A DNA stretch of 63,011 nucleotides from an uncultured Spartobacteria bacterium. GTDB lineage: Bacteria; Verrucomicrobiota; Verrucomicrobiia; Chthoniobacterales; Chthoniobacteraceae. The position numbers and the translations under genes are program-made. The notes under the pieces are model-generated. The model had not been told where the DNA came from and searched no databases. It saw nothing but the letters and a program-made list of their open reading frames with translations. Shown here one piece after another: positions 13,810 to 49,239 of the stretch (positions are counted from its first letter, which is position 1; each line of letters opens with the position of its first letter). The stretch covers positions 1 to 63,011 of the forward strand of contig CAIRYQ010000081.1 in NCBI GenBank assembly GCA_903882875.1. Direction: 5' to 3'.

Positions 13810-14813
13810 GCGCGGTGACGGTCCTCGCGATCGAGACTTCCTGCGACGAGACAGCCGCCGCGGTGATGCGCGGCGATGCGCTGTTGTCGAGCGAGGTCGC
13901 GTCGCAGATTCCGCTGCACGCGCTGACCGGCGGCGTGGTGCCGGAGGTCGCGTCGCGCAATCATCTGCGCACACTGCGCCCGGTGATCGCGAGCGCACTG
14001 GCAAAGGCGGGCGTCTCACTCGGTGGAATCGAGATTTTCGCCGCGACGCGCGGACCGGGGCTCGCGACTTCGCTGATGATCGGGCTGTCCGCGGCAAAAG
14101 GACTCGCGCTCGGATTCCGCCGGCCGTTCGTCGCAGTGAACCACATCGAGGCGCACCTGCTCTCGCCATTTTTCGGGCGCGGCGGCGTGCGCCCGGCAAT
14201 CGGCCTCGTCGTGAGCGGCGGGCACACGATGCTCGTCGAGATCGAGGCGGTCGGAAAATATCGGCTGCTCGGCAAAACACACGACGACGCGGCAGGCGAG
14301 GCGTTCGACAAGGTCGGCAAGCTGCTCGGCCTGCCGTATCCCGGGGGGCCGAATGTGAACCGGCTCGCGCGCGAGGGCGACGCGACGCGCTTCGATTTCC
14401 CGCGCTCGATGCTTTCGTCGGGCGACTTTGCGTTCAGCTTCAGCGGGCTGAAGACGAGCGTGCGGTATCTCCTGCAAAAAATGGACAGCGTGCCGGTGGC
14501 CGATGTGTGCGCGTCATTTCAGGAAGCCGTCGTGGACGTGCTCGTGGACAAAACCGTGCGTGCAGCGATCGAGACGAGGTGGAAGACAATCGCGGTGAGC
14601 GGCGGCGTGAGCTGCAATTCACGTCTGCGTGAAAAGCTGGCAGCAGCGTGTTCCGCTCGCGGCATCGAGCTGCTGCTCGCCGAACCTTCGCTCTGCACGG
14701 ACAACGCGGCGATGATCGCCTACGTCGCTTCACTACGGGTAGCCGGTGGGCAGGTGAATGATCTTGCGGAGGACATCGATCCGAACCTGCGGCTCGATGC
14801 AATGCCACAGTAG
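13806..14813 (+). CDS. tsaD: tRNA N6-threonylcarbamoyladenosine synthase subunit TsaD
   Basis: TsaD transfers threonylcarbamoyl to A37 of ANN-decoding tRNAs, working with TsaB and TsaE. The 335-residue sequence shows LAIETSCDETAAAV, the metal-binding histidine in VASRNHLRTL, VNHIEAHLLSPFF, LVVSGGHTMLVEI, DDAAGEAFDKVGKLLGLPYP and VSGGVSCNSRLREKL. The start is a GTG that overlaps the ctpA stop by 4 nt (GTGA). The stop codon TAG is the first part of a hairpin repeat shared with other sites in the window. Confidence 0.96.
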   Translation: MSAVTVLAIETSCDETAAAVMRGDALLSSEVASQIPLHALTGGVVPEVASRNHLRTLRPVIASALAKAGVSLGGIEIFAATRGPGLATSLMIGLSAAKGLALGFRRPFVAVNHIEAHLLSPFFGRGGVRPAIGLVVSGGHTMLVEIEAVGKYRLLGKTHDDAAGEAFDKVGKLLGLPYPGGPNVNRLAREGDATRFDFPRSMLSSGDFAFSFSGLKTSVRYLLQKMDSVPVADVCASFQEAVVDVLVDKTVRAAIETRWKTIAVSGGVSCNSRLREKLAAACSARGIELLLAEPSLCTDNAAMIAYVASLRVAGGQVNDLAEDIDPNLRLDAMPQ

Positions 14814-14837
14814 CCGCCGACGGAGGGAGGCGGCTAC
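14810..14837. terminator. Hairpin repeat between convergent tsaD and ispA
   Basis: The 9-bp arms GTAGCCGCC and GGCGGCTAC flank a 10-nt loop. It begins at the tsaD stop codon and lies between convergent genes, so it could act as a bidirectional terminator, though there is no T-tract. The same GTAGCCGnCGA word occurs inside ribF and near 10337-10352, so it is also a dispersed repeat. Confidence 0.5.
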
Positions 14838-14849
14838 GAAAGAAGCGGC

Positions 14850-15731
14850 TCAGTACTCCCGCGCGAGCAGGTAATCCGCGAGGGCGCGCAGCGTGTCGGC
14901 CTTTTTGCCGAATGGCTTCAGCGCGGTGTGGGCTGTGCGCGTGAGGCGCTTTGCCTCGGCGCGGCTTTTTTCGAGGCCGAAGATCGCGGGATACGTGGCC
15001 TTCTGCGCGGCGACATCCTTGCCGGCGCTCTTGCCGAGTTTTTCGGTCGGCTGCGTCACGTCGAGGATGTCATCAATCACCTGGAACGCGAGGCCGACGC
15101 TCTGGCCGAAAGTGGTGAGTGCTTTGAGCTGCGCGGGCGTGGCGTTTGCGCTCATCGCGCCGAGGCGGATGCTCGCAGTGAGGAGCGCGGCGGTCTTGCA
15201 GCGGTGGATGTATTTCAGATCGTCGCCGCCGAGTTTGCGGCCTTCGCCCTCAAGGTCGGCGACCTGCCCGCCGACGAGCCAGCGGCTGCCGGATGCGTGT
15301 GCGAGGTCTGCGATCTGCACGGCGATGGGATGGCGTCTTGCGGGTTTTGATTTTGAGAGAATCTCGAATGCGACGGTTAGCAGTGCGTCGCCGGCGAGCA
15401 CGGCGATGCCGTCGCCGAAGACCTTGTGGTTCGTCGGGCGGCCGCGGCGGAGATCGTCGTCGTCCATGCACGGGAGATCGTCGTGGATGAGCGAGTAGGT
15501 GTGGATGCACTCGACTGCGCACGCGGCGGGAAGTGCGTCCGCGATTTTTCCACCGCACGCCTCCGCGCTGGCGAGCGTGAGCACGGGGCGCAGGCGTTTT
15601 CCGCCGGCGAAGATCGAGTAGCGCATCGCCTTGTGGATGGTGTGCGGCTTTGTGGATTCCGACGGGAGATGGCGGTTCAGCTCGCGATCCACCAATTTGG
15701 TGCGCGCGGCGAGATAGCTGGGGATTTCCAT
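14850..15731 (-). CDS. ispA: Polyprenyl (farnesyl-type) diphosphate synthase
   Basis: This 293-residue trans-isoprenyl diphosphate synthase has both aspartate-rich motifs: the first as DDLPCMDDDDLRRGRPT and the second as DDILD in VIDDILDVT. GGKRLRPVL lies near the N-terminus. The small residue pattern and length fit the FPP synthase/IspA group, condensing IPP with DMAPP/GPP to farnesyl diphosphate; exact chain length cannot be read from sequence. Start ATG at 15731 (MEIPSYL). It lies 51 nt downstream of nadE on the same strand and may be co-transcribed. Confidence 0.9.
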   Translation of the reverse strand: MEIPSYLAARTKLVDRELNRHLPSESTKPHTIHKAMRYSIFAGGKRLRPVLTLASAEACGGKIADALPAACAVECIHTYSLIHDDLPCMDDDDLRRGRPTNHKVFGDGIAVLAGDALLTVAFEILSKSKPARRHPIAVQIADLAHASGSRWLVGGQVADLEGEGRKLGGDDLKYIHRCKTAALLTASIRLGAMSANATPAQLKALTTFGQSVGLAFQVIDDILDVTQPTEKLGKSAGKDVAAQKATYPAIFGLEKSRAEAKRLTRTAHTALKPFGKKADTLRALADYLLAREY

Positions 15732-15782
15732 CCGCCGAGTAAGCTGCAATCGGCGCGGCGGGTTCGAGAAGAAAGTGCGGCG

Positions 15783-17417
15783 CTATTCCGCGAATCGCTG
15801 GGCGACGGGCATCCTGCGACCGACTCCGAATGCCTTGCTGGTGACCTTGAGGCCGGGCACGGCCTGCGCGCGTTTGTATTCGTTTTGCGCGACGCGCTTC
15901 ACGACCCAGTGTACGGTTGCGATGTCAAAGTCACGCGCGGCGATTTCATCGGCGCTCTGTCCTTCCTCGACGAGAAGTTCGAGGATCGGGTCCAGAATTT
16001 CGTACGGCGGGAGCGTGTCCTGGTCGCGCTGGTTCGGGCGCAATTCGGCGCTCGGAGGTTTTTCGATCGTGGCGGCGGGGATGATTTCGCGGTCGCGGTT
16101 CAGCCAGCGGGCGAGCTTGTAGATCATCATTTTTGGCACGTCGCTGATCACGGCGAGGCCGCCGCACATGTCGCCGTAGAGCGTGCAGTAGCCGACGGCG
16201 AGTTCGCTCTTGTTGCCAGTCGTGAGGAGCAGGTGGCCGAATTTGTTGCTGAGGGCCATGAGCGTCATGCCGCGGAGTCGGGGCTGCATGTTTTCCTCGG
16301 TCACGTCCTCGGGTTTGCCGTCGAAGAACGGGGCCATCTGCTCCTTGAACGCAGCGAAAGACTTTTCGATCGGGATCGTGAGGCAGCGGACGCCGAGGGC
16401 GGTGGCGAGCTTGAGCGAATCGCCCACGCTGCCTTCGCTCGAATAGCGGGTGGGCATGGTGACGCCGAGGACATTGTCCGCGCCGAGCGCCGCGGCGGCG
16501 ATGGCCGCGGTGACTGCGCTGTCAATGCCGCCGCTGAGGCCGAGCACGGCGCTCTTGAATCCGCACTTTGCAAAGTAGTCGCGCGTGCCGAGGACGAGGG
16601 CGCCGAACAGCTCCTCCTCCTCGCATTGGAAGTGCGGAGTGCGAAGTGCGGAGTGCGGAGTGCGGATTTCGACGAGCGCATTTTCTGCGCGGAAAGAAGC
16701 GAGCTGCGCGATGCATCCGCCGGTCTCGCTGACTGCGAAGGAATTTCCGTCGAAGATGAGCTGGTCGTTTCCGCCGACGGTGTTGCAGTATGCGATCGGG
16801 ACGTCGTGCGCGCGTGCGCGTGCGCTGAGCATGCCGAAACGGCGGCGCGGTTTGCCGACCTCGAATGGCGAGGCGCTGAGATTGAGGATCACTTTCGCGC
16901 CCTGCGCGGCGAGTGAGGCGAGCGGGTCGCAGTCGTAGAGCTGGCGCGGGAGATATTCGCGGCTCCAGATGTCCTCGCAGATCGTGACGCCGCAACGGAT
17001 GCCGGCGATTTCGACGGGCTCGTTTTTTTCCGCGGGCTGAAAATAGCGGGCCTCGTCGAAGACATCGTACGTCGGCAGGAGCGATTTGAAGATGCGGCGG
17101 ATGGGTTGGCCGCGCTTGAGGATCGCGGCGGCGTTTCGGAAGGGACGGCCGGGGCCGGAGTTCACGTCCACGTAGCCGACGAGGAGCGGAACATCGCCGA
17201 CTTTTGCGTGCAATGCTTCGAGTGCGGCGAGGTTTTGTGGGACGAAGCGGCTTTTGAAAAGAAGGTCGAGCGGCGGGTAGCCGGGCAGCGCGAGTTCGGG
17301 CGTGAGAACGACGTCGGCGCCACTTTTTACGAGCGACGAATACGCGGTGAGGATGGCCGCGGTGTTTGCGGCGAAATCGCCGACGGTGGGATTGATTTGT
17401 GCGAAGCCGACCTTCAT
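15783..17417 (-). CDS. nadE: Glutamine-dependent NAD+ synthetase
   Basis: This 544-residue two-domain enzyme makes NAD+ from deamido-NAD+ using glutamine. The N-terminal nitrilase-fold glutaminase has the Glu-Lys-Cys triad in ELALPGYPP, KSLLPTYDVFDE and CEDIW. The C-terminal synthetase has the P-loop LSGGIDSAVTA. GNKSELAVGYCTLYGDMCGG and RPNQRDQDTLPPYEILD are also typical. The interdomain linker carries an in-frame direct repeat (RTPHSALRTPHF), a low-complexity insertion. Start ATG at 17417 (MKVGFAQINPTVGD) matches the family. Confidence 0.95.
   Translation of the reverse strand: MKVGFAQINPTVGDFAANTAAILTAYSSLVKSGADVVLTPELALPGYPPLDLLFKSRFVPQNLAALEALHAKVGDVPLLVGYVDVNSGPGRPFRNAAAILKRGQPIRRIFKSLLPTYDVFDEARYFQPAEKNEPVEIAGIRCGVTICEDIWSREYLPRQLYDCDPLASLAAQGAKVILNLSASPFEVGKPRRRFGMLSARARAHDVPIAYCNTVGGNDQLIFDGNSFAVSETGGCIAQLASFRAENALVEIRTPHSALRTPHFQCEEEELFGALVLGTRDYFAKCGFKSAVLGLSGGIDSAVTAAIAAAALGADNVLGVTMPTRYSSEGSVGDSLKLATALGVRCLTIPIEKSFAAFKEQMAPFFDGKPEDVTEENMQPRLRGMTLMALSNKFGHLLLTTGNKSELAVGYCTLYGDMCGGLAVISDVPKMMIYKLARWLNRDREIIPAATIEKPPSAELRPNQRDQDTLPPYEILDPILELLVEEGQSADEIAARDFDIATVHWVVKRVAQNEYKRAQAVPGLKVTSKAFGVGRRMPVAQRFAE
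16629..16665. repeat. AGTGCGGAGTGCG direct repeat within nadE
   Basis: The word agtgcgga/agtgcgaa is repeated five times in tandem with an 8-9 bp step. It encodes TPHSALRTPHF in the linker between the glutaminase and synthetase domains and keeps the frame. Confidence 0.75.
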
Positions 17418-17553
17418 GGACGGCGGCGACACTACGGCAGGGCGGCGGGCGATGGCTACGGCGAGTTTGCGCAGGGCGCGTCAGGTGCGCTGACGCGATG
17501 CACCGTCATGCGAGTGACCGGTCACTTCCACGAAGCGGCCGATTTTTCCGCCC

Positions 17554-17751
17554 TCAGTGAAACTCGGAATTCTTATTGATGGGATGCGCCACCTGCCGCG
17601 AATCGCCGTACAATGCCTTTACCGCCTTGTCGCCGTTGATGTCCTCATTGGCCTGCCAGATCATGTGCTTGTAAAATTCGATGAGCCCCGCGGCGCACAG
17701 CCCCCAGAACATGGTGATGAAGACTTTTTGCATGAAAGAATTCTGAATCAT
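17554..17751 (-). CDS. Small hypothetical membrane protein
   Basis: The frame encodes 65 residues: a hydrophobic segment (VFITMFWGLCAAGLIEFY, one probable membrane helix) followed by a polar tail (ANEDINGDKAVKALYGD). I do not recognise a family. It lies 32 nt downstream of the CPBP protease on the same strand and upstream of nadE, so it could be part of that transcript. An alternative start is the internal Met at 17733. The calm amino-acid composition, unlike shadow frames of GC-rich DNA, supports it being real. Confidence 0.5.
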   Translation of the reverse strand: MIQNSFMQKVFITMFWGLCAAGLIEFYKHMIWQANEDINGDKAVKALYGDSRQVAHPINKNSEFH

Positions 17752-17783
17752 GCCCGTATCGCAAAGCAGATCGCCGGCCAGAC

Positions 17784-18470
17784 TCACCAGAATCCCCACT
17801 GGCCGGTGCGCAGGATGTAGATGGCGAGGACGAGATTCGTGACGGCATGGGTGAGCACGCACGCGGCGAGGCTGCGGGTGCGGTAGGCGACGAGATTGAA
17901 AAGCGCACCGGTGACAATGGCGGCAGGCCAGTCCTCGCTTTTGTGAATGGCGCAAAACCCCGCGATGCTGATGAGAAAGGAGCGCCATGTAAAAGTGCCG
18001 AACGGGACCGATGCAAAATCCTCCCGCACGAGGAAGCGCAGGAGGAAGCCGCGCCAGAAGATTTCCTCGACGAAGGGGACGACGACGATCATGCGGAAAA
18101 GCCGTGCGGCAAGAGTGCCCCAGAAAGGCCAGCCGGAGCTTCCGAAAAAATAGGGATCGAAGCCGTCAATCCGCGGAGCGGTCTTGAAAATCACCTGCGG
18201 CGCGATCCACACGGCGAGGGAGAGAAAGCCGACGAGTGATGCAAATCCGAATCCTGCAATGGGGCGGAGTTCGACACGCCTGCGCAGCCTCCAGAGCAGT
18301 ACGGCACACACGGCGGTCTGGAGCGGAAAGATCCAGTAACGCGGCTGCGAGAGCGCCCAGTATGCGTAGCCCTCCCCGAGTTTTCTCACGACTGCATCGA
18401 GAAAAAGGAACGCAAAAAAAACGAGGAAGGGCGCGGCATAAGCTACCCTTTCAGAGCGCACACCATTCAT
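17784..18470 (-). CDS. CPBP intramembrane metalloprotease (CAAX protease-related)
   Basis: This 228-residue integral membrane protein carries the CPBP (Rce1-like) motifs: EEIFWRGFLLRFLV (glutamate pair and arginine), a CAIHKSEDW helix with the histidine, and LTHAVTNLVLAIYILRTGQW near the C-terminus. The C-terminal pattern and the VPFGTFTW segment resemble the CAAX-protease-related proteins associated with exosortase/PEP-CTERM systems. No exosortase gene is in this window. Start ATG at 18470 (MNGVRSERVAYAAPFLVF). Only a few bases separate it from the divergent gene to its right. Confidence 0.8.
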   Translation of the reverse strand: MNGVRSERVAYAAPFLVFFAFLFLDAVVRKLGEGYAYWALSQPRYWIFPLQTAVCAVLLWRLRRRVELRPIAGFGFASLVGFLSLAVWIAPQVIFKTAPRIDGFDPYFFGSSGWPFWGTLAARLFRMIVVVPFVEEIFWRGFLLRFLVREDFASVPFGTFTWRSFLISIAGFCAIHKSEDWPAAIVTGALFNLVAYRTRSLAACVLTHAVTNLVLAIYILRTGQWGFW

Positions 18471-40345: not shown

Positions 40346-40675
40346 ACACCCGTCGCCGTTTGTCACTTGCGGCGGACGCCCTTTCATCCCAGCGCACTTG
40401 CCGAAACCCAGTCCTGCGTCTCGTCACTAATGATGACAAAATTCAGTCGCGTAGCATCCGCCGTGCGTGCGGACTCCGTAGAAGCAAAATCAGTAAAGTG
40501 TAGCCGCCATGGTTCGGGGATCGTTGGCGCGGTGGAACGCGTCGCTCCGCGCGCGTTTCGCGCGTGGATTGGAAAGCTTGCTTGCAAGCCGCTGGAAGCG
40601 CGCGCGGAGCGACGCGCTCCACCGGCGCGGCCGTGCCTTCATCCAAGAACGCGCCACACTTTGACTTAAGCCGCT
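40346..40675. other. Spacer dominated by an inverted repeat
   Basis: I see no gene. The right half is the inverted repeat at 40527-40628; the left half is the degraded tail of the vapC region. A TAGCCGCC word, the head of the GTAGCCGCC repeat family, lies at 40501. Confidence 0.4.
40527..40628. repeat. GGTGGAACGCG inverted-repeat element
   Basis: The arms GCGCGGTGGAACGCGTCGC and the near-complement at 40606-40628 (GGAGCGACGCGCTCCACC...) form an approximately 25-bp stem around a loop of about 45 nt. The loop holds a smaller palindrome (AAGCTTGCTTGCAAGC). A related copy lies in frame in the cytochrome gene at 7021-7120. It is the left border of the hydrolase island, just past the DUF1906 stop. 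Confidence 0.8.
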
Positions 40676-41446
40676 CTAGGCTGGCGGAAGGATGAGCTTC
40701 CCGAGGAACGCATCGAGATCGAGTCCGGGATTTGCCTCGTTCGTATCGATCCCGTCGCCACCGCCACACTCGGCCGCGTATTGCCAGGCATGGACCGGGC
40801 AGTTCGGCGCAGGCGACGGCTGGACGTGCGCAGGATTCCAAGGTGGAGGAACCACACAGGTCGGCGGATCCGCCACCCATCGTGCCAGCCAGACGCTCGA
40901 ACAGGGGGCTGTCTGCTGGGCTTGTGCCAGAGCGATCCACGTAGCATGATCCAAATTGCAATATAGCCCCGGCAGAAGCGTGACGCCATCCTGTGAGGAT
41001 TGCCGGCTATAAGCCTGCAAAGTCAGCGCCCAGCCAATCCAATAACTTGCGGAAAGCGAAGGATTGGGATCTCCCTCCACATCCAGATAGACAAAGAACT
41101 GCCCTCCTTGCGACCGGAGATAGTCTGCTCCAAAGGCGGCGAAGATGGCGTCCACATTTCCACGGGCATCACGCGCTCCATCGGCCTGGGTTCCATGCAC
41201 GTTTCCGGTCTGGCGGGCAATTGGTGCCACCCGAATCTTCCGCTGGGCCAGCACCGCATGCTCATGGTTTGGATTATATTGGACGCCACCGAAGTCGGAC
41301 GGCGTCTTGAAATAGCGTCCCCAGAAGCGGGGATCGTCTCCGAATAAGTCACGCGCACGATCCAGCAGGGTTTTCCCGCCGATTTGATGAAGCACCTCAG
41401 CGGAACTGTCCGCACCCGGCGCACCTATGTTTTTGTTGTCTGGCAT
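40676..41446 (-). CDS. DUF1906 (GH25-like TIM-barrel) protein
   Basis: The 256-residue protein matches the glycoside-hydrolase-like DUF1906/Rv2525c pattern: RFWGRYFKTPSDFGGVQYNP at the start, QFFVYLDVEGDPN with the acidic pair at the barrel core, LLPGLYCNLDHATW, and the ending AWQYAAECGGGDGIDTNEA. The fold is related to GH25 lysozymes, so a cell-wall or glycan role is plausible, though not all members are active. No signal peptide is seen. It is the last gene of the leftward island. Confidence 0.75.
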   Translation of the reverse strand: MPDNKNIGAPGADSSAEVLHQIGGKTLLDRARDLFGDDPRFWGRYFKTPSDFGGVQYNPNHEHAVLAQRKIRVAPIARQTGNVHGTQADGARDARGNVDAIFAAFGADYLRSQGGQFFVYLDVEGDPNPSLSASYWIGWALTLQAYSRQSSQDGVTLLPGLYCNLDHATWIALAQAQQTAPCSSVWLARWVADPPTCVVPPPWNPAHVQPSPAPNCPVHAWQYAAECGGGDGIDTNEANPGLDLDAFLGKLILPPA

Positions 41447-41501
41447 ATTGATGTTTTGTTGTTTGTTGTTGGTCTGTGATAGGAATGGACTGCCGGTTCT
41501 A

Positions 41502-42566
41502 TTATGGCGAAGCGGCTGGCAGCACCTCGACCTCTGCCCAAAGCGCCCCCGGTCCCTGTGGATCGCCAAGCAGACGGACATGCTGGCCTATTGAAATGAT
41601 CCCCTTTGGCTGCTGCTTCGAGCGCGCGGCAACACGGACATTGACTGGCACGATAATCTTCACCTCATCCCCAGCCTTGGGAATCCTAGCACCAGTATCC
41701 ACAGTCTGCAGGCCCCAGCCGGAGTCATTATGATTGCCGAGTAACACCCATCCTTTCAATCCAGCCGGAGCTTTTTTCCACTCATAGACGTCCGCCGTAT
41801 AGACCGGAAGCGTTTCAGGGTTCTTGCCCAGCAATTCAGCCACACCGACGCTACGCTCGTATTTTACCCGCAACGCGACTCCGATGGTGATACCCGGTGT
41901 CTTGTTTGCAAAGCGTTTTACGATGACTTTGTCCGCCGACCCAAATCGGATTGCAGCTGCCTCGGGCGGAGCTGCCATCGTGTAAGGAGTGCTCCGGTTG
42001 GCAGCCACATCGATGTCCTTTATTTTCCGATCATTGGCATCCAGCAATTCAGCGTGGTAGGCAAAGCTCTCGTCAACCGTCACAATCTGAAGCGTCCTGC
42101 CGGGCACAGACCAAGAGGCACCGGCTGCAGCTGGTTCCTGGGCGTAAGCCGAGGACGAAAAAATGGAAAATAACCCAAACCCTCCATTCTCTTGAAATTC
42201 AGTTGCAGGCTTGGGCTGTGAGTTACCCGGCTTCTGTTGCGGATCATTCTGCACCCCGCTGCCCAGATTGATGAGGAATGAGGGCAGCGCGATTCCAAAG
42301 ACGAAAGCCTTCCCCGCGTTCGGTTCGCGGAAAATCCGCACCAGCAGGGCCCCGAGCACACCGAAGCCAATGACGAATGCCCAAACTTCCCCTTCAATTT
42401 TCGAAACGACATGCCCTGCGGTAAAGAATTCGCGGATTTGCCGCATCAGCACCGCCAGTACGCCTCCAACGAAACCGGCAATCATTACGTCCCATTTGTT
42501 CTCGGATGTATTCGATGCAATCCCATTTTCAGGTGTTGCTTTTGGACCTTGGTTCTCAGGAGGCAT
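41502..42566 (-). CDS. Hypothetical membrane protein of the hydrolase island
   Basis: The 354-residue protein has about three transmembrane helices in its first 110 residues (VMIAGFVGGVLAVLMRQI, VWAFVIGFGVLGALLVRIF, AFVFGIALPSFLINLGSGV). A linker and a soluble domain with GRTLQIVTVDESFAYHAELL, VGVALRVKYERSVGVAEL-like strands and a C-terminal barrel (GQHVRLLGDPQGPGALWAEV) follow. I recognise no family. It is 42 nt downstream of the FN3-like gene and 55 nt upstream of the DUF1906 gene. Confidence 0.65.
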   Translation of the reverse strand: MPPENQGPKATPENGIASNTSENKWDVMIAGFVGGVLAVLMRQIREFFTAGHVVSKIEGEVWAFVIGFGVLGALLVRIFREPNAGKAFVFGIALPSFLINLGSGVQNDPQQKPGNSQPKPATEFQENGGFGLFSIFSSSAYAQEPAAAGASWSVPGRTLQIVTVDESFAYHAELLDANDRKIKDIDVAANRSTPYTMAAPPEAAAIRFGSADKVIVKRFANKTPGITIGVALRVKYERSVGVAELLGKNPETLPVYTADVYEWKKAPAGLKGWVLLGNHNDSGWGLQTVDTGARIPKAGDEVKIIVPVNVRVAARSKQQPKGIISIGQHVRLLGDPQGPGALWAEVEVLPAASP

Positions 42567-42608
42567 AGCTGGCGGAGGTTTGGGTTTAAGAACGGAACTG
42601 AAACTTGA

Positions 42609-43529
42609 CTAGGTGAGCACCACCGTCACCACCTCGCTCGCCACACTCTCACCGGCGGCGTTTTGGGAGGTGACGTAAAACTTCACGGTGGCCTTTGCGG
42701 GCAGGTTTTCCAAGAGCACGTCCAGTTCGCTGGTCAGTGGCAGCGCCACGGGCGAGGCATCCACTCCGATGACCTGCTTGAACGGGCGGTAATGGTCCGC
42801 GCGCGGCGCATGGGCCCATGCAAACAGCGCCGCGGTCGCGCTGACCTGGTGGCCATTCACCGAATCGGGGATGGCCGGAGTCTGCGCACCGGCGGGCGGG
42901 ACAAGGCCGAAGTAATACCATTCGTCCGAATCGGCATCGAGGAGCTGGCCGAGTTCCGTCTTCAGGCCGCTCATGCGGTCGCGCAGCGTTTGCACGGCGG
43001 TGTCGCGCGTACTCTTGGACTTGGAACGGTCGCCCACGGCCTGATTCAGCGCACTGCGGGCGGCAGTCAGCGCGGCGGAGAGCGCCTGAGCATTGGCTTG
43101 GGTGTAATTCTTGGCAGCTATCTCCTTGCCGGGATTCGCCTTCAGGTAGGCGGCGATGCCGTCGAGGATTTTCACGCGGCCGGGGATGTCCGTCGGCACC
43201 TGCGTCGTGCCCGGCGCGAAGCCGACCGCCTTCCAATCATCCGAGGGAGCCGTGCCGAAATCGTCCGTCAACTGCCGCTTGGCCAGGAAGAGGAAGCCCT
43301 TTGCGTTGGAATTCGCCACATTGCGCGCGGAGAGCGCCTTCCCCTCGTTCCCCTGTGCCAGCGGGAACGCCGCATCGGCATCCTTCGCCGCCTGAAGGTC
43401 GGGATCAAAGACGGCCTGCGTGTTTTGCTTGATGCCGATTTCGGCCTCGTGCGCGCCCAGCGCATCGCTCATGTCGTCGCCGAGGGCAAAAAGGGCGGTG
43501 TTTGTGTCGGGGAGTCGGTTCTGTGCCAT
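42609..43529 (-). CDS. FN3-like domain protein of a verrucomicrobial family
   Basis: The 306-residue protein has a helical N-terminal half (DTNTALFALGDDMSDALGAH, then ANSNAKGFLFLAKRQL and an Ala-rich coiled coil). The C-terminal part is a fibronectin type III-like domain (WYYFGLVPPAGAQTPAIP, LDVLLENLPAKATVKFYVTS then NAAGESVASEVVTVVLT). There is no signal peptide. It resembles a multi-copy, uncharacterised family in this phylum, so structural or adhesive use is possible. The ATG at 43529 is chosen because sequence upstream is the repeat array. Confidence 0.65.
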   Translation of the reverse strand: MAQNRLPDTNTALFALGDDMSDALGAHEAEIGIKQNTQAVFDPDLQAAKDADAAFPLAQGNEGKALSARNVANSNAKGFLFLAKRQLTDDFGTAPSDDWKAVGFAPGTTQVPTDIPGRVKILDGIAAYLKANPGKEIAAKNYTQANAQALSAALTAARSALNQAVGDRSKSKSTRDTAVQTLRDRMSGLKTELGQLLDADSDEWYYFGLVPPAGAQTPAIPDSVNGHQVSATAALFAWAHAPRADHYRPFKQVIGVDASPVALPLTSELDVLLENLPAKATVKFYVTSQNAAGESVASEVVTVVLT

Positions 43530-43917
43530 GGGAGTTTTGGATTTGTGTTTTGATGAAAGCCGGAGGCCGGATTTCGGGGATAAAATCAGAAGGAAAACCG
43601 AATGGGTGACGCCGTGCCCGTCCGTTTCCGGTGTCCAAATGGATGCCCACGGCCATGCCCGCCCGTTTCTGGCGCTGAAACGGAGAGCCACGCGTGTGCC
43701 CGCCCGCCAACGGAGCCGAAACGGACGCCCACGCGCGTGGGCGCCGGTTTTCGCCCTGAAAATCCGCGCCCACGGCCGTGCCCGTTCATCACAGGCTCCC
43801 GAAATGTGCCGCCACGCGCGTGCCCGTCCGTTTTAAGGGGGAAAACGGCCACCCACCGCCGTGGCCGGGTTTTTCCAGGGCAGAAACATGCGGGAACGAT
43901 GGAAGAATGGGGAATCA
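43530..43917. other. Spacer holding the 41-bp repeat array
   Basis: This gene-free region within the island is filled mainly by the array at 43621-43867. Open frames on both strands arise from the repeats and look like Arg/Pro/Ala-rich noise, so I do not call genes. Confidence 0.5.
43621..43867. repeat. Six-unit 41-bp double-hairpin array
   Basis: Six degenerate units of 41-42 bp begin at 43621, 43662, 43703, 43744, 43785 and 43827. Each has a cgttt...gaaacgg-type half (e.g. CCGTTTCTGGCGCTGAAACG) and a gcccacgcgcgtgggc-type half (perfect in unit 3 as GCCCACGCGCGTGGGC). Sequence flanking the units on both sides looks like further decayed copies. No conserved spacers occur, so it is not a CRISPR array. 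Confidence 0.85.
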
Positions 43918-45153
43918 TTAGTTGCGTGGCGTCCTGTTCAGGCTCACAGCTTTTTTGTTTTTGCTGGCACCAGTGCGGTCCTTTTCATTGGGATCCTTGC
44001 CGGAGTTGCGGATGTTGATGAAGCGTCCGAGCACGTCGAACCAGAACGGCGCTCCCAGCGAGGCTGCAATGGCGGTGAGGAACCAGCCTGCTATGACAAG
44101 CAGCCAAGCTTGTTTCCAATAGTCTTTCTGCGCCTGCTCCCAGCCCATCGGAATGCCGGTGTCCTTGAGCTTGGTGATACTTGCATTGAAATCCGACATG
44201 GTTGCATCGACACCTACTGCTTCGTCCAAATCCTTCTGCGCTGCGACCGACTTATCGATATCTTTGGCAGCTTTCGCGGCACCCAATTTTTCATTCGCCT
44301 TCTTTATCGCATCTTCCTTGCTCTTATGCGCCGCCAACACATGCTCATAGGTTCCAGGAGGAGAAGAAGTTTTTGAATAGTTTCCAGCCTGTGTGGCCAA
44401 GGCTTTGGCCAGATTCGGGCTCTTGGAAAGGGTATCTACGATACGGAGTGTATCAACATTGAGAATGGCAGCCAAAACAAGCCCAATCACGATCATCCAT
44501 TTTTGCGCAAAACGCTTATACCAGCCAGAAACACGATCCATCGCGTCATTGAACCAAGCCTCAATCGCGGTCTTGAACTTGCCCAAGTTCTGCCCTGCGA
44601 TGGCGAGCAGGGAAGACAGACCCTGCTTCAACTTATCGTTTTCCGGCAGCGCTGCTATTGCGTCCTTGAGAGCCTGGGGGATGTCACCCGAGGTCAGATC
44701 GAGAATTGCATTGGCAACAGGCGGATTGGCAACGGACGCATTCAGCTTGCCATTGACAAGCTGATCGAGCAACGAGGTGACGAAAGCCCCTGCCGGAATG
44801 TAGGAGGGGGAGTTGCTCTTGTCAGAGCGTGACAGGGCATTGATTAGACCGTGATTGCACAGGGCTTGCACCCGGTCATTTGGGTCAGGATCTGGCGCGG
44901 ATGGTGCGACAAAGAAACTCTTAATCCATCCTCCTATGGCTTTCAGGAGATTGCTGACGCAGTCCACCAAGTGTCGCCACCCACTTTTGGGTGCGGCAGC
45001 ATCGGTGCCAAGCAGTTCCTTCAATCCCATTCGCAGGAATTTCGCCCGCTGATCGAAGTAGGAAAGAATGACTTCATTCAGCGCCGAGACGACAAGGCTG
45101 AAGAGCAGGAATACAAAAACAGTACCAATGGCAACATCGAGGATGGGAGGCAT
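43918..45153 (-). CDS. Hypothetical membrane protein, terminal-anchor family
   Basis: The 411-residue protein has an N-terminal membrane helix (VAIGTVFVFLLFSLVVSALN), a long helical middle and a central hydrophobic segment after MDRVSGWYKRFAQKWMIVIG. A coiled coil (AHKSKEDAIKKANEKLGAA and on) and a C-terminal membrane segment (WLLVIAGWFLTAIAASLG then APFWFDVLGRFINIRNSGKD) follow. This arrangement recurs in an uncharacterised bacterial family. It is expressed 18 nt downstream of the small 107-residue gene. Function unknown. Confidence 0.7.
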   Translation of the reverse strand: MPPILDVAIGTVFVFLLFSLVVSALNEVILSYFDQRAKFLRMGLKELLGTDAAAPKSGWRHLVDCVSNLLKAIGGWIKSFFVAPSAPDPDPNDRVQALCNHGLINALSRSDKSNSPSYIPAGAFVTSLLDQLVNGKLNASVANPPVANAILDLTSGDIPQALKDAIAALPENDKLKQGLSSLLAIAGQNLGKFKTAIEAWFNDAMDRVSGWYKRFAQKWMIVIGLVLAAILNVDTLRIVDTLSKSPNLAKALATQAGNYSKTSSPPGTYEHVLAAHKSKEDAIKKANEKLGAAKAAKDIDKSVAAQKDLDEAVGVDATMSDFNASITKLKDTGIPMGWEQAQKDYWKQAWLLVIAGWFLTAIAASLGAPFWFDVLGRFINIRNSGKDPNEKDRTGASKNKKAVSLNRTPRN

Positions 45154-45171
45154 GGCGGTGCGAATCTGGAA

Positions 45172-45495
45172 TTAAATCGCCGAGATGGCGGCAGTGATGA
45201 TGATGCTGATGACGCCATTGATGAAGCTGTCGAAAGCGGCATGTGCGAGGCCGGCTTCCTTTAGGGCATCCATTTTAGCCAGATCGCCCTCATCTTGCAT
45301 CAAATCCCTGAATTGATCGGCCGTGATTTGCCCCTGCTCCAATTGGTCGGTGTAGTTTTGCAAATCCGCCTTCGCAGCTTGCAAAAATGCGTTCCCATCC
45401 GCAATGGCTTGGGTTTTGTAAGTGGTGAATGTGGTTTCCGCGAGGTGAGCGATTCCCTGTTCCGCGCTTTGTATGATTTTGTCGATGTCGGCCAT
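45172..45495 (-). CDS. Small helical hypothetical protein
   Basis: The 107-residue protein is helical and acidic (DIDKIIQSAEQGIAHLAETT, LQNYTDQLEQGQITADQFRD) with a hydrophobic C-terminus (FINGVISIIITAAISAI) that could insert in a membrane. I recognise no family. It lies 23 nt after the lipoprotein gene and 18 nt before the large membrane protein. Confidence 0.65.
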   Translation of the reverse strand: MADIDKIIQSAEQGIAHLAETTFTTYKTQAIADGNAFLQAAKADLQNYTDQLEQGQITADQFRDLMQDEGDLAKMDALKEAGLAHAAFDSFINGVISIIITAAISAI

Positions 45496-45518
45496 GGTCG
45501 TATTGTCGGTTGGTATTT

Positions 45519-45962
45519 TTAGTTCTGTGAAGATTGATTCTGAGGCTTTTTGTTCTTTCCGCTTTCAAGCTGGATGATTTCATCAAATTCCCGTCCCACA
45601 TGGCCCTTCTTGTCTTCAATGAAAGTCTTGCTTTGGGGGCCTGATGTTTTCCACGCAGTCAGAAATCTGTTCAGGATTCCATTGTCACCCCGCAGCACAT
45701 CCCAGGAAGAGATGGTATAATGATTGAGCGGGCGGCCTTTGTCATATTCATACGCCTTGTCCAGTTCGAGATGGAGTGCGGCGATCTCCTTGGAGTAATT
45801 GGAGTAGGAGCCTGTTGCCTTGTCCATGAGGGCAAGGGTATCCACCTTCGCATTGGTTGCATTGGCATAGGCAGCCTGATCATAGGTTGCGATGGTGCTG
45901 CAACCAGTGAGAATGCCGAACAGCAGGATGATTATTGTGCGCGTTACGTTAATGATTTGCAT
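45519..45962 (-). CDS. Small lipoprotein, island copy 2
   Basis: The 147-residue lipoprotein has the signal RTIIILLFGILTGC with a lipobox Cys. The mature part is helical and charged (NAKVDTLALMDKATGSYSNY, IAALHLELDKAYEYDKGRPL). No family is recognised. With the preceding lipoprotein it lies just downstream of the lipase. Confidence 0.7.
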   Translation of the reverse strand: MQIINVTRTIIILLFGILTGCSTIATYDQAAYANATNAKVDTLALMDKATGSYSNYSKEIAALHLELDKAYEYDKGRPLNHYTISSWDVLRGDNGILNRFLTAWKTSGPQSKTFIEDKKGHVGREFDEIIQLESGKNKKPQNQSSQN

Positions 45963-46035
45963 CGTTGTTTTGGTTTGTTCTGGAGTGTCGCGAGTGCTTG
46001 ATGATATTGAGAGAGCAGGAAGCAAAGGCGGTGAA

Positions 46036-46446
46036 TTATTTACTTGCACCGTTTTCAACCCCTTGGGCCAATGCTTCCAATAGATCAGCGGCGATTTTTC
46101 CGTTGCCACTGAGTTTGCTGTAGTAGCGCGCATAGGTGTCAGCCACGATTTTTCCGATGAGAGCGGCTTCAGGATCAGTGGTGAAGCTGGCTATCGCTTT
46201 GTTGACAGCAGGAACGGTTGGAACTTCTCCTGTTGCCAAAGAGCGAAGGGCCGCACTGATATTGTAGACATCCGCCTTTGTTCTGGAGCTTTGTTTGCGC
46301 ATTGCAATCTCTGTGCCTGTTGCGGCTGCAATGGTGATATACGGCAGGCTTCCTTCTATATTTTGCACTGCGCAACCTGTCAGCGAGATGTACGCAAATG
46401 CTGTCAGTGCAACGATGATCGGGTGGGTGATGCTATTATTTTTCAT
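46036..46446 (-). CDS. Small lipoprotein, island copy 1
   Basis: The 136-residue lipoprotein has the signal IIVALTAFAYISLTGC with a lipobox Cys. The mature part is helical (AAATGTEIAMRKQSSRTKAD, EAALIGKIVADTYARYYSKL). No family is recognised. It starts 25 nt after the lipase stop, which suggests co-expression. A role in protecting the envelope from island hydrolases is a guess. Confidence 0.7.
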   Translation of the reverse strand: MKNNSITHPIIVALTAFAYISLTGCAVQNIEGSLPYITIAAATGTEIAMRKQSSRTKADVYNISAALRSLATGEVPTVPAVNKAIASFTTDPEAALIGKIVADTYARYYSKLSGNGKIAADLLEALAQGVENGASK

Positions 46447-46471
46447 AGTTTTGACTGTTGGTAGGAATGTT

Positions 46472-47359
46472 TTAAATGAGGGTGCTGAGTGCTGCTTGTT
46501 GTGCGCCCACTACGGCGGCGTAGCCGTCCATGCTGTGGTCACCCACATCGGTTCGGACATTTCCCATGATGCTGAAGAATTCCTTGAAGCTCTCGAACGT
46601 GCGGACGAGCAGATTCGCCCATTGGGAACTTTGGAGTTTCGGTGTGCCCGTATCGTCGAAATGAATCATTTGCCCGATGTCGCCGTAGTCCCATCCGCGA
46701 AACGGAACGCGGGGAACAAGATCCTGCTTGTTGACGAAGCGGAAGGTTTTGGACTGGAGGATTTGGTCATAGCTGGCGCAGAAGGGATGCAGACCGACAC
46801 GGGGCTGGCCGAAAGTGTAGATGCCGCTCACCGGGCGGATGGTGTCGTCCGGAAGAAATGAAAAAGCCGCACCGGAGAGCACCGCGAGTGCGCCGCCCAG
46901 GCTGTGACCAGTGATCCAGAAGGTGGGCTGTGGCGCGGAGGCCAGCGTTGCGAGGCTGGCGTTCTTGTCGGGGCGCGGCGCGACAATTTCCAGAGCGGCA
47001 TTGATTTTGTCCCAAGCATCTCTCAACGCGTGCCCGAAGCCCGCATGCACGTCACCGACTTCCGCCGCACCTTCAAAAAGCCACGAAAAGCGGGCGGGCG
47101 TCGCTTGAAGATCGTCCATCCAGTCCCGCGTGTCCTGAGTTCCCCTAAATGCGAGAATGGCGTGGGTATCGCAGCTTGCGACGAAAGCGTGCAGGCCGAG
47201 AAACCATTCCGTGAGATCAATCCACTCGAAATTTGGAAACCCCAGCCGTGCAGCGGTGCTGCGCGCAGCGGGTTGGTCGAGGTAGGCAGCCTGCGAGGCT
47301 TGCGCCAGTAGCAGCGCGTTATCTGCGCTGAATTTTGTAGCAGTTGGATCGAAGGGCAT
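46472..47359 (-). CDS. Class 3 lipase-family hydrolase
   Basis: The 295-residue alpha/beta hydrolase has the serine nucleophile in TGHSLGGALA (S153), TFGQPRVG, the catalytic Asp in VNKQDLVPRVPF (D213) and a His in VGDHSMDGYAA (H275). CDTHAILAFRGTQDTRDWMD is the family's oxyanion region. Lipase_3 members cleave triacylglycerols or phospholipids. No signal peptide is visible, which is unusual for a lipase. It starts 13 nt after the papain-like protease gene. Confidence 0.85.
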   Translation of the reverse strand: MPFDPTATKFSADNALLLAQASQAAYLDQPAARSTAARLGFPNFEWIDLTEWFLGLHAFVASCDTHAILAFRGTQDTRDWMDDLQATPARFSWLFEGAAEVGDVHAGFGHALRDAWDKINAALEIVAPRPDKNASLATLASAPQPTFWITGHSLGGALAVLSGAAFSFLPDDTIRPVSGIYTFGQPRVGLHPFCASYDQILQSKTFRFVNKQDLVPRVPFRGWDYGDIGQMIHFDDTGTPKLQSSQWANLLVRTFESFKEFFSIMGNVRTDVGDHSMDGYAAVVGAQQAALSTLI

Positions 47360-47372
47360 AATGTTAGTTGGG

Positions 47373-48152
47373 TTACTGCACGACGCGGATGGTCCAGAAG
47401 TCGGAGGACAGGTTGGCAGTGAGAAGGTAGGCGTAGGGCATGGTGAAGTAGCCTTTGATGCCCCAGCCGTTGCCCCAGGAGTTGCGGATGATGAATCGCT
47501 GCAGGCTGTCGTCGTAGCCGACGGCGAGGACGGCGTGACCGCCGAGGACACTTTCGCCGGTGGCGGGCAGATTGAGCACGCCAGTTTTGGCGACCTGCGG
47601 GCCTTCAAAGGCGGAATAGACGGTGAAGCCGAGGACGAATGGATAGCCTGCGGCGAGGCAGCCTTTCATCTGAGCCAAATCACGGGCGACAGCCTGATAG
47701 CTGACGGCTTTGTTTTTCAGTGCGTCGGCGTATGCCTTTTGGGGCGGTTTGGCGGCGAATTGACTTATGTCATAGGGCCATTCGGGTTCGGGGCAGACGC
47801 CTTGTTTGGAGACGCTCTTGATGCCGTCGCGAATCTGTGCGCCGGCGTCGGAGGCAACGGTGTGCTCGATGACGCGCTCGTTATAGTAGATGAAAAGGCG
47901 CGAGGGCATGAAGTCGGCGAGCTTTTGCTTGAGCAGGTCGAATTCGATGGCAGCGGCGATGGCGTTGGCGGTGCAACTGCCGAGCTGGCCTTGGTCATAG
48001 ACGGCGGGGCAGGCTTTGCGGAGATCGGCTTTTGGCGGAAGCGCGGCGACTGTGGCGCGGGGAGCGGCGAAGATGTGGTCGCGGTGGTCGGGCAGGTCGG
48101 GCTGCCAGCCGTAGCCGCGTTTGAGGGATTTGTTGGCGAGTTTTTTGGACAT
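47373..48152 (-). CDS. Papain-family (C1) cysteine protease
   Basis: The 259-residue protease has the oxyanion Gln and nucleophile in DQGQLGSCTANA (Q54, C60), the His in VLGGHAVLAVGYD (H206) and the Asn in IIRNSWGNGWG (N224). The N-terminal GYGWQPDLPDHRDHIF is typical of a bacterial C1 subgroup; there is no long inhibitory prodomain and no signal peptide. It is the first gene of the leftward hydrolase island and precedes the lipase by 13 nt. Confidence 0.88.
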   Translation of the reverse strand: MSKKLANKSLKRGYGWQPDLPDHRDHIFAAPRATVAALPPKADLRKACPAVYDQGQLGSCTANAIAAAIEFDLLKQKLADFMPSRLFIYYNERVIEHTVASDAGAQIRDGIKSVSKQGVCPEPEWPYDISQFAAKPPQKAYADALKNKAVSYQAVARDLAQMKGCLAAGYPFVLGFTVYSAFEGPQVAKTGVLNLPATGESVLGGHAVLAVGYDDSLQRFIIRNSWGNGWGIKGYFTMPYAYLLTANLSSDFWTIRVVQ

Positions 48153-48582
48153 GGTGTTTGAGGTTGTGATTTTTTTGAAAGCCTTGGCGGCTTGGAGTAA
48201 TTTAGTCTCTCGGCATCACTCGAAACTCCGGTGAGAGCCTTTGATGGAAACGTCCAGTTTTCGAGTTGGTGATGGCAATGTGCTTGCCAGCGGCGACAGG
48301 AGAACAGGCGCGTTGGCTGCGCGTCTATGGGGTGGATTCCCTTTTTGAATGGGTAGGATTCCCGTGCCTTTTTGGGAGAACTATCCGGGCTGCTTGGCTT
48401 GATGCTGGAGCATGAGGCGGGCAGGCGGAGCGGGTATTTTCAGTCGTGTTGCGAAGAATCTGCGGCAGCGCGGTTTCCTGCTTGCGTTGATCAGCGGGAA
48501 ATGGGTAGTTCTCACGCGTGTCCGCTATGTCGAAGGGGGTACCTTCGGAAAACGGGCTTGGAAATACGAACCCCAGATTGCG
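48153..48582. other. Divergent regulatory spacer
   Basis: This 430-bp spacer lies between the start of the protease-lipase island and the response regulator gene and should contain both promoters. A T-tract (atttttttg at about 48170) lies close to the island start. No RNA gene or repeat is recognised. The reading frame open upstream of the regulator from 48412 has non-conserved composition. Confidence 0.35.
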
Positions 48583-49239
48583 ATGAAAGCGGCTCCAGCA
48601 TCGAAAACAGGCCCGGCACCCACGACGGTGGTGCTCGTGGATGATCATGATTCGCTTCGGGGGATGCTGCGGCTGATTTTGAATCTGGAGGGCGGCTTCG
48701 AGGTGGTGGGCGAGGCGGGGAGCGGCCTGGAGGCGATGAAAGTGTGTCGCGCAGCGAGGCCGCAGATCGTAATTTTGGATCTGAAGCTGCCGGAACTGAA
48801 CGGCACGCATCTCATCCGCCTGTTGCGGCAGGAGCCGTGGGAGGTGCGCGTGCTGGTGTACACGGGCTCGGCGGATGAGGCGCTGATGCTTGAGGCGCTG
48901 GCCGAGTCGCCGCACGGGTTTGTGCGCAAGGAGGATTCGCTGCCGGAACTGCGCGCTGCGCTGAAGGCGGTGGTGGCCGGGGCGCGACTTTTGTCGCCGT
49001 GGGCCTCGCGGCTCATGCCGTCCAAGGCGGACGATGCCCTCAGGAAACTCACGCCGTCGGAGCGCGCGGTGCTGCAGATGCTGGCCGAGGGGCTTCACAC
49101 GAAGGAGGTCGCCGAGGCGCTGGGGGCGTCGGTAAAGACGGTGGAGCATCATCGCCAGCATCTGCGGGACAAGCTGGGGCTGCACGATGTGGCGGCTCTC
49201 ACGCGCTTTGCGATCCGGCACCGGATGGTTGCGCCGTGA
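48583..49239 (+). CDS. NarL/FixJ-type response regulator
   Basis: The 218-residue protein has a receiver domain (VVLVDDHDSLRGMLRLIL, phospho-acceptor D66 in VILDLKLPE, then the YTGSADEALML switch region). A LuxR-type helix-turn-helix follows (LTPSERAVLQMLAEGLHTKE, ALGASVKTVEHHRQHLRDKL). It should activate or repress transcription upon phosphorylation. No histidine kinase is adjacent, so it is an orphan. It is divergent from the hydrolase island and might regulate it, by position only. Start ATG at 48583. Confidence 0.88.
   Translation: MKAAPASKTGPAPTTVVLVDDHDSLRGMLRLILNLEGGFEVVGEAGSGLEAMKVCRAARPQIVILDLKLPELNGTHLIRLLRQEPWEVRVLVYTGSADEALMLEALAESPHGFVRKEDSLPELRAALKAVVAGARLLSPWASRLMPSKADDALRKLTPSERAVLQMLAEGLHTKEVAEALGASVKTVEHHRQHLRDKLGLHDVAALTRFAIRHRMVAP

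What the first reader, a model, noticed from the sequence alone, without database searches (positions are those of the whole stretch)
40676..48152. Three-hydrolase island: papain-like protease, class 3 lipase and GH25-like protein with lipoproteins and membrane partners
Seen: nine co-directional genes with mostly short gaps, encoding a C1 protease, a Lipase_3 hydrolase, two small lipoproteins, a small helical protein, three membrane/FN3-like proteins and a DUF1906 protein. None of the three hydrolases shows a signal peptide, although all belong to families that usually act on extracellular or wall substrates. Inference: it could be a leaderless effector set released by lysis or a contractile or other secretion machine, or a surface-processing or antagonism module. 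I know of no described system with this composition.
Basis: partly seen in the sequence, partly recalled or inferred. Interest (0 to 1): 0.75.

Follow-up and report, generated by a model that had tools for sequence, protein, structure and literature searches.

The report
Membrane-linked cassette of unexported hydrolases
A bacterium carries a gene cassette in which a membrane protein, a lipoprotein and a small helical protein travel with protein- and lipid-cutting enzymes that lack export signals; related bacteria carry the same core with other cutting enzymes, which looks like an undescribed cell-lysis or enzyme-release device.

Summary
The nine minus-strand genes at 40676-48152 are real; C1 protease and Lipase_3 are intact and leaderless. 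Two labels were not confirmed (DUF1906 for the last gene, FN3 for the seventh). The cluster is not chance. Among 213 genomes of the order, lipase and C1 lie within 4 kb in 4 of the 6 holding both. A lipoprotein-small helical protein pair recurs: in 20 further hel loci, 17 have a lipoprotein gene directly upstream, and 16 lie beside the membrane protein mem411 or an enzyme gene. mem411 also occurs in Pseudomonadota, Bacteroidota and Cyanobacteria; 25 of 35 mem loci have a catalogued enzyme (amidase, CHAP, GH75-like, lipase, patatin and others) within three genes or fused to it. None of 41 such neighbours has an N-terminal export segment. A response regulator stands divergently at several cassette heads. 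No contractile sheath or T6SS VipB was detected in the host genome. Best reading, inferred: a regulated lysis/demolition cassette whose membrane scaffold holds cytoplasmic hydrolases until released on the envelope. Closest functional analogue: holin/endolysin release (T10SS), but holin criteria are not met and spanin evidence is inconclusive. Death versus enzyme release is unresolved. New variant of a known kind.

The parts
47373..48152 (-). g1: leaderless C1 (papain-like) protease, 259 aa
   Evidence: Pfam Peptidase_C1 2.3e-16; PDB 3ois 1.2e-75; catalytic C/H/N kept
46472..47359 (-). g2: leaderless class 3 lipase, 295 aa (ATG at 47359)
   Evidence: Pfam Lipase_3 2.5e-27; Ser/Asp/His kept
46036..46446 (-). 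g3 lipo1: small lipoprotein, 136 aa; no relative in the fetched loci
   Evidence: lipobox by eye; weak Rz-like spanin phrog_456 E=0.0017, residues 3-68 only; no homologue in fetched loci
45519..45962 (-). g4 lipo2: lipoprotein of the conserved lipo-hel pair, 147 aa
   Evidence: lipobox Cys invariant in 9 of 9 aligned sequences, this one included; PADLOC model 'Csx23' 1.7e-10
45172..45495 (-). g5 hel107: small helical protein with hydrophobic C-terminus, 107 aa
   Evidence: matches in 26 of 213 genomes of the order at E<=0.01, ten of them below 1e-20; lipoprotein gene directly upstream in 17 of 20 further loci
43918..45153 (-). g6 mem411: predicted 3-TM inner-membrane protein, core of the cassette
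   Evidence: 26 of 213 genomes of the order, 12 plasmid records of other phyla; three TM segments here and in 27 of 37 homologues at a similar threshold; fused to Lipase_3 in L054
43611..43857 (.). five copies of a 41-nt repeat between mem411 and g7
42609..43529 (-). g7: soluble 306-aa protein, conserved partner
   Evidence: homologue L091_3 in a row with Rv2525c, GDSL-like and C1 genes; remnant in L155
41502..42566 (-). g8: 354-aa protein, three TM segments near the N-terminus
   Evidence: TM scan; homologue L155_10, 28.6% over 343 aa, E=6e-43, same relative position; weak match L061_3 (E=4e-4) right after mem
   Evidence: no Pfam/NCBIfam hit; one relative besides the host, 60% identity, in G538
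48412..49239 (+). divergent LuxR-family response regulator, likely control gene
   Evidence: Pfam Response_reg 1.3e-21 and GerE 5.9e-15; relatives (26-43% identity) divergent to cassette genes in L002, L058, L061, L075, L076, L077, L078, L091; also L155

Best explanation
A regulated lysis/demolition cassette. The 3-TM protein mem411 sits in the inner membrane with its C-terminus in the cytoplasm (inferred from positive charges, and from a fusion that places a lipase on that end) and keeps leaderless hydrolases at the membrane. The lipoprotein-helical pair links the device to the periplasmic or outer-membrane side. When the divergent response regulator or another trigger switches it on, the membrane part opens or disrupts the inner membrane; lipase, protease and (in relatives) wall hydrolases reach lipids, envelope proteins and peptidoglycan, and the cell lyses. 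The hydrolases are interchangeable modules. Shown: gene content, order conservation, lack of export signals, the fusion, module swapping. Inferred: topology, opening step, trigger, lysis. Whether lysis serves defence by cell death or release of enzymes is not resolved.
For: Core pair: of 20 further loci with hel (one duplicate dropped), 16 have a lipo-family gene and one more a lipobox gene directly upstream on the same strand, 3-51 nt away; 16 of 20 lie beside mem411 or an enzyme or PG-binding gene (my reading). Synteny: L155 (another family) has regulator <-> lipo-hel-mem/g7 remnant-g8-M15/PG-binding; L061 has regulator <-> 11 genes on one strand: alpha/beta hydrolase-like, lipo, hel, C70 protease, two unknown, mem, g8-like, CHAP/PG-binding, lipase, C1. 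Fusion mem411-Lipase_3 in L054, patatin gene adjacent. Rv2525c-lipase-mem on a cyanobacterial plasmid. mem then amidase, 1 nt apart, in Caballeronia and Hymenobacter. 25 of 35 mem loci have a catalogued enzyme within three genes or fused. 0 of 41 such neighbours has an export segment. Caspase, trypsin-nuclease and membrane-embedded patatin-like genes directly beside the lipo-hel pair or its next gene in sister loci, and a TIR gene nearby.
Against: No functional data. mem411 matches no holin family and its structure prediction failed (pLDDT 35). The window's own wall hydrolase is uncertain (g9 unassigned). 10 of 35 mem loci show no catalogued enzyme within three genes, and 4 of 20 hel loci stand alone. 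The catalogue was seeded from these neighbourhoods, so its enrichment (38 of 183 near vs 4 of 116 far) is partly circular; 6 of the 25 positive loci rest on similarity alone (of these, Pfam was run on L048 and L059 and found no family) and two are haloperoxidases, not hydrolases. In the fused L054 protein only the first TM segment passes the threshold; three appear in the mem part at a looser one. C1 alone is common (49 of 213 genomes) and shares a locus with mem in only 6 of the 14 genomes with both.
Confidence: 0.45

Rival explanations
1. Holin-like, T10SS-type release: the membrane part and the lipoprotein export leaderless enzymes as cargo, with or without lysis, to act outside the cell on polymers or neighbours.
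For: Leaderless chitosanase-like GH75, lipases, proteases and chloroperoxidases look like cargo; T10SS of Serratia and Yersinia release proteins with holin, endolysin and spanins (PMC10847048 passages), and Salmonella T10SS are reported as non-lytic (PMC13284979 abstract).
Against: mem411 is not holin-like in size; no i-spanin recognised; the fused lipase (L054) and the patatin-like proteins with several TM segments are tied to the membrane, which does not suit release.
Confidence: 0.25
2. Antagonism effectors with immunity: hydrolases are delivered into rivals and the lipoproteins are periplasmic immunity proteins.
For: Tle1-like phospholipase genes near mem in L054 (Pfam) and L040 (annotated DUF2235); chagasin-type inhibitor directly after C1 in L084; sheath matches in 6 of 26 mem-positive against 15 of 187 other genomes.
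Against: No sheath or VipB match in the host genome; the lipo-hel pair goes with many unrelated enzymes, not one cognate toxin; a chagasin gene in 1 locus only.
Confidence: 0.15
3. Island of separately useful genes gathered at an insertion hot spot beside a response regulator; no joint function.
For: Low GC; different cassettes at what looks like the same ribBA-flanked site in the sister family (my reading); C1 often occurs without the other parts.
Against: Same-strand order and adjacency kept across families, and the mem411-lipase fusion.
Confidence: 0.1

Closest known systems
Type 10 secretion system (holin/endolysin/spanin cassettes: Serratia ChiWXYZ, Yersinia entomophaga YenLC)
   Same: Small regulated cassette with a membrane protein, a wall hydrolase and lipoproteins, used to release proteins such as chitinases (PMC10847048 passages).
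   Different: No holin family and no recognised spanin pair; mem411 homologues are mostly about 290-670 aa; proteases and lipases lie inside the cassette; enzymes are swapped freely.
Trypsin-NucA 'System 3' of Kaur et al. 2020 (PMC7159879)
   Same: Sister cassette L153 encodes a trypsin-Endonuclease_NS fusion, and L041 has a nuclease plus a trypsin-S8 protease with amidases. The section read describes this core, activated by proteolysis, with associated effectors that may attack peptidoglycan.
   Different: That section does not mention a lipoprotein, a small helical protein or a mem411-type core; the window has no trypsin or NucA match.
T6SS lipase/amidase effectors and extracellular contractile injection cargo
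   Same: Similar enzyme classes, leaderless, sometimes with Tle1-like genes.
   Different: No sheath or VipB match in the host genome.
Csx23 (type III CRISPR effector)
   Same: lipo2 matches PADLOC's Csx23 model.
   Different: Lipobox in all 9 aligned sequences; Csx23 is described as a protein with two N-terminal TM helices and a cytoplasmic cA4-binding domain (PMC11014256 passages); its structure was not among the PDB matches of lipo2; no Csm1 match in the genome.
Xylellain-type C1 protease (PDB 3ois; the name xylellain is recalled)
   Same: g1 aligns over residues 8-258 of 259, E=1.2e-75.
   Different: Nothing in g1 marks it as exported; the PDB entry's own context was not examined.

Membership tests
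T10SS / phage-type lysis cassette | small holin | tested here: not met
   mem411 and hel107 match no holin family in Pfam or PHROGs at E<=0.1; mem411 is 411 aa with 3 TM
T10SS / phage-type lysis cassette | leaderless peptidoglycan hydrolase (endolysin) | tested here: inconclusive
   met in relatives (Amidase_2, CHAP, DUF2272, GH25, phage lysozyme, M15); the window's g9 is unassigned
T10SS / phage-type lysis cassette | Rz/Rz1 spanin pair | tested here: inconclusive
   lipo1 weak match to Rz-like spanin phrog_456, E=0.0017, residues 3-68 only; lipo2 none
T10SS / phage-type lysis cassette | export of leaderless cargo or lysis | not testable with these tools
   needs experiment
T6SS effector set | T6SS sheath in the genome | tested here: not met
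   VipB not found in G000; found in 3 of 24 genomes searched
Extracellular contractile injection cargo | contractile sheath in the genome | tested here: not met
   Phage_sheath_1C not found in G000; found in 21 of 213 genomes
Trypsin-NucA System 3 | trypsin-like protease with NucA nuclease | tested here: not met
   no such family among the nine proteins; present in L153
Csx23 type III CRISPR effector | Cas10-type signalling complex in the genome | tested here: inconclusive
   no Csm1 match in G000; Cmr2 not searched
Polymorphic toxin | toxin domain at the C-terminus of a long trafficking protein | tested here: not met
   stand-alone 259- and 295-aa enzymes with one Pfam enzyme domain each

The most novel reading that the evidence does not exclude
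An undescribed class of bacterial self-demolition machine: a fixed core (lipoprotein, small helical protein, and a membrane scaffold of the mem411 or patatin-like kind) that accepts interchangeable proteases, lipases, nucleases and wall hydrolases, under a neighbouring response regulator, comparable in logic to apoptosis and spread across phyla through its membrane scaffold.
Probability: 0.33. Interest if true: 0.82.

Novelty: new variant of a known kind. Interest (0 to 1): 0.62.

Why it matters
If right, mem411, found here in four phyla and without a significant match in Pfam or NCBIfam, gains a testable role: a membrane scaffold that arms cytoplasmic hydrolases. It would tie lysis-type release systems to protease/lipase/nuclease self-destruction systems through one shared core, and would explain why wall- and lipid-active enzymes in these loci carry no export signal.

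Tried and rejected
Csx23/CRISPR reading of lipo2: PADLOC model hits, but lipobox, no Csx23 chain among PDB matches and no Csm1 match. Phage origin: one scan of viral contigs with two short peptide patterns found no mem411 relative; the only strong PHROGs hits (E<1e-5) are a lipase and a peptidase family. L004 is an enoyl-CoA hydratase, a false hit. G199 and G324 are weak and were dropped before counting (L055, L056). Structure predictions of mem411 and g9 were unusable, so no fold search was run. lipo2, hel107 and g9 gave no plasmid match. GH75 and CHAP labels were checked late: L077_6, L059_8 and L048_4 match no Pfam family and keep their label only by similarity. Seven literature searches turned up no description of this composition in their listings: Csx23, DUF1906 (61), DUF2272/lipase/amidase (62), type 10 secretion system (73), patatin/caspase/trypsin/peptidoglycan (95), Verrucomicrobia/papain/lipase/lysis cassette (96), chitosanase/GH75/amidase (97); the library holds open-licence papers only. 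Papers: PMC10847048, PMC11014256, PMC11229360, PMC12419801 and PMC3482391 passages; PMC13284979 abstract and outline; PMC7159879 passages and one section.
Full report
What is there. Nine minus-strand ORFs run from 48152 to 40676. In order of transcription: C1 protease, class 3 lipase, lipoprotein lipo1, lipoprotein lipo2, 107-aa helical protein hel107, 3-TM protein mem411, soluble g7, g8 (three TM segments), and g9. Gaps are 13-73 nt except for 388 nt between mem411 and g7, where five copies of a 41-nt repeat lie. GC of the island is 0.566 against 0.589-0.652 in windows of equal size outside it. Protease and lipase are confirmed by Pfam and keep their catalytic residues. The label DUF1906 for g9 could not be confirmed, nor FN3 for g7.

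The organism. mem411 relatives come from 'Verrucomicrobia bacterium isolate 9' and a Prosthecobacter MAG, so the phylum is very probably Verrucomicrobiota.

Conservation. In 213 genomes of the order, matches were found to mem411 in 26, the lipase in 16, C1 in 49, hel107 in 26 at E<=0.01 and g9 in 2, the host counted in each. Six genomes hold both lipase and C1: in four they lie within 4 kb (G000, G382, G459, G508; the G508 lipase match is partial), in one they are 46 kb apart, in one on different contigs. Six hold mem411 and lipase: same locus in three. Fourteen hold mem411 and C1: same locus in six (my reading; sets counted). In an even sample of the phylum hel107 was found in 1 of 288 genomes, the host itself, and mem411 in 4 of 337 including the host, two of them weak and dropped. 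mem411 relatives are also on 12 plasmid records of Pseudomonadota, Bacteroidota and Cyanobacteria.

The core. hel107 relatives (A and B types, only weakly alike) have a lipoprotein gene directly upstream: of 20 loci apart from the window (one duplicate dropped), 16 carry the lipo family, one a lipobox protein, two a short ORF without a recognised signal, and one none. Nine aligned lipo2-type sequences, the window's included, keep the lipobox cysteine. Sixteen of the 20 loci lie beside mem411 or an enzyme or PG-binding gene; L161-L164, with weaker hel matches, do not (my reading). In L158 the neighbour is known only by a PG-binding domain, and in L152 and L153 the patatin match is below Pfam's cut-off.

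The swapping parts. Next to mem411, by Pfam: Amidase_2 (L003, L040, L041), DUF2272 (L002), CHAP/PG-binding (L053, L061; CHAP alone in L067), Hydrolase_2 (L043), GH75 (L058, L062, L065; L015 and L075 below the cut-off), phage lysozyme (L045, opposite strand), Rv2525c (L044), patatin (L054, L071, L075), DUF900 (L015), vanadium chloroperoxidase (L046, L047); in L058 the GH75 gene lies several genes away, at the far end of the cassette. Next to lipo-hel: C1 (L154, L156), phage lysozyme (L159), caspase and a relative of the CHAP proteins (L160), DUF900 hydrolase, a patatin-like protein with several TM segments and a trypsin-Endonuclease_NS fusion (L153), M15/PG-binding (L155). In L054 mem411 and Lipase_3 are one 662-aa protein. 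Of 35 mem loci, 25 have a catalogued enzyme within three genes or fused; ten do not. Of the 25, 18 rest on a Pfam match above cut-off, one (L058) on 61% identity to the window's lipase, and six (L048, L050, L059, L060, L064, L070) on similarity alone. Catalogued genes make up 38 of 183 genes within three of mem and 4 of 116 genes six or more away (Fisher p=1.1e-5); because the catalogue was seeded from these loci, this overstates the case. The 41 catalogued genes within four of mem all lack an N-terminal hydrophobic segment, whereas 193 of 812 genes in the loci have one; no upstream start codon changes this, though one frame (L015_3) runs to the contig end and the 41 include a duplicated pair and fragments.

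Control gene. A response regulator with receiver and LuxR-type domains stands divergently at the head of the cassette in the window. Relatives stand divergently to cassette genes in L002, L058, L075, L076, L077, L078, L091, L061 and L155. In the sister family several of these cassettes appear to share one site beside a ribBA-like gene (my reading), so part of this association is a shared insertion site. In the host family the regulator also occurs without any window cassette gene beside it (L121-L125).

Mechanism. mem411 homologues mostly have three TM segments (27 of 37 at one threshold), with no K or R before the first and two or three after it in most, which puts the N-terminus outside and, with three spans, the C-terminus inside. 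The lipase of the fusion would then be cytoplasmic and tethered; in that protein the second and third segments pass only a looser threshold. Leaderless wall, lipid and protein hydrolases behind an intact inner membrane are harmless to the wall until the membrane opens; this is the logic of holin/endolysin lysis, inferred here. Sister cassettes with caspase and trypsin-nuclease genes resemble the published trypsin-NucA conflict systems (PMC7159879) and make self-destruction my preferred reading. Release of enzymes for use outside (T10SS logic) remains a serious rival. Delivery by an injection machine is unlikely here.

Novelty. The enzymes belong to known classes; the core proteins lipo2, hel107, mem411, g7 and g8 have no match above a curated cut-off in Pfam or NCBIfam, and seven literature searches turned up no description. 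I call it a new variant of a known kind; the bolder reading is in the section on the most novel reading.

Noticed in passing
43611-43857: Five copies of a 41-nt GC-rich repeat with palindromic parts between mem411 and g7; possibly a mobile or recombination-prone intergenic repeat.
   Followed up: partly
40530-40624: 35-nt inverted repeat (89% complementary, 25 nt apart) just downstream of the last gene of the island.
   Followed up: no
L003:9929-13603 and 14141-17815: mem588 plus amidase unit present twice in tandem, with proteins of equal length and matching ends, in a Prosthecobacter MAG; true duplication or assembly artefact.
   Followed up: no
L084:6973-7299: Chagasin-family (I42) cysteine-protease inhibitor gene 17 nt after a C1 gene: a likely guard for the producing cell. 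No other such gene among the called genes of the fetched loci.
   Followed up: partly
L155:7575-7793: 72-aa ORF joining a mem-type N-terminus to a piece of g7: looks like a deletion remnant of the syntenic cassette.
   Followed up: partly
L046 and L047: Vanadium chloroperoxidase genes without an export segment upstream of mem411 relatives on Paracoccus and Rhizobium plasmids.
   Followed up: partly
45519-45962: PADLOC's Csx23 model matches five of the eight lipo2-type lipoproteins scanned; the model may have captured lipoproteins unrelated to CRISPR.
   Followed up: partly
L053:2004-7019: STAND-like NTPase and SIR2-like genes (my reading of the sequences, no family call) a few kb from a mem411 locus; genome G514 has a contractile sheath match on the same contig.
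   Followed up: no
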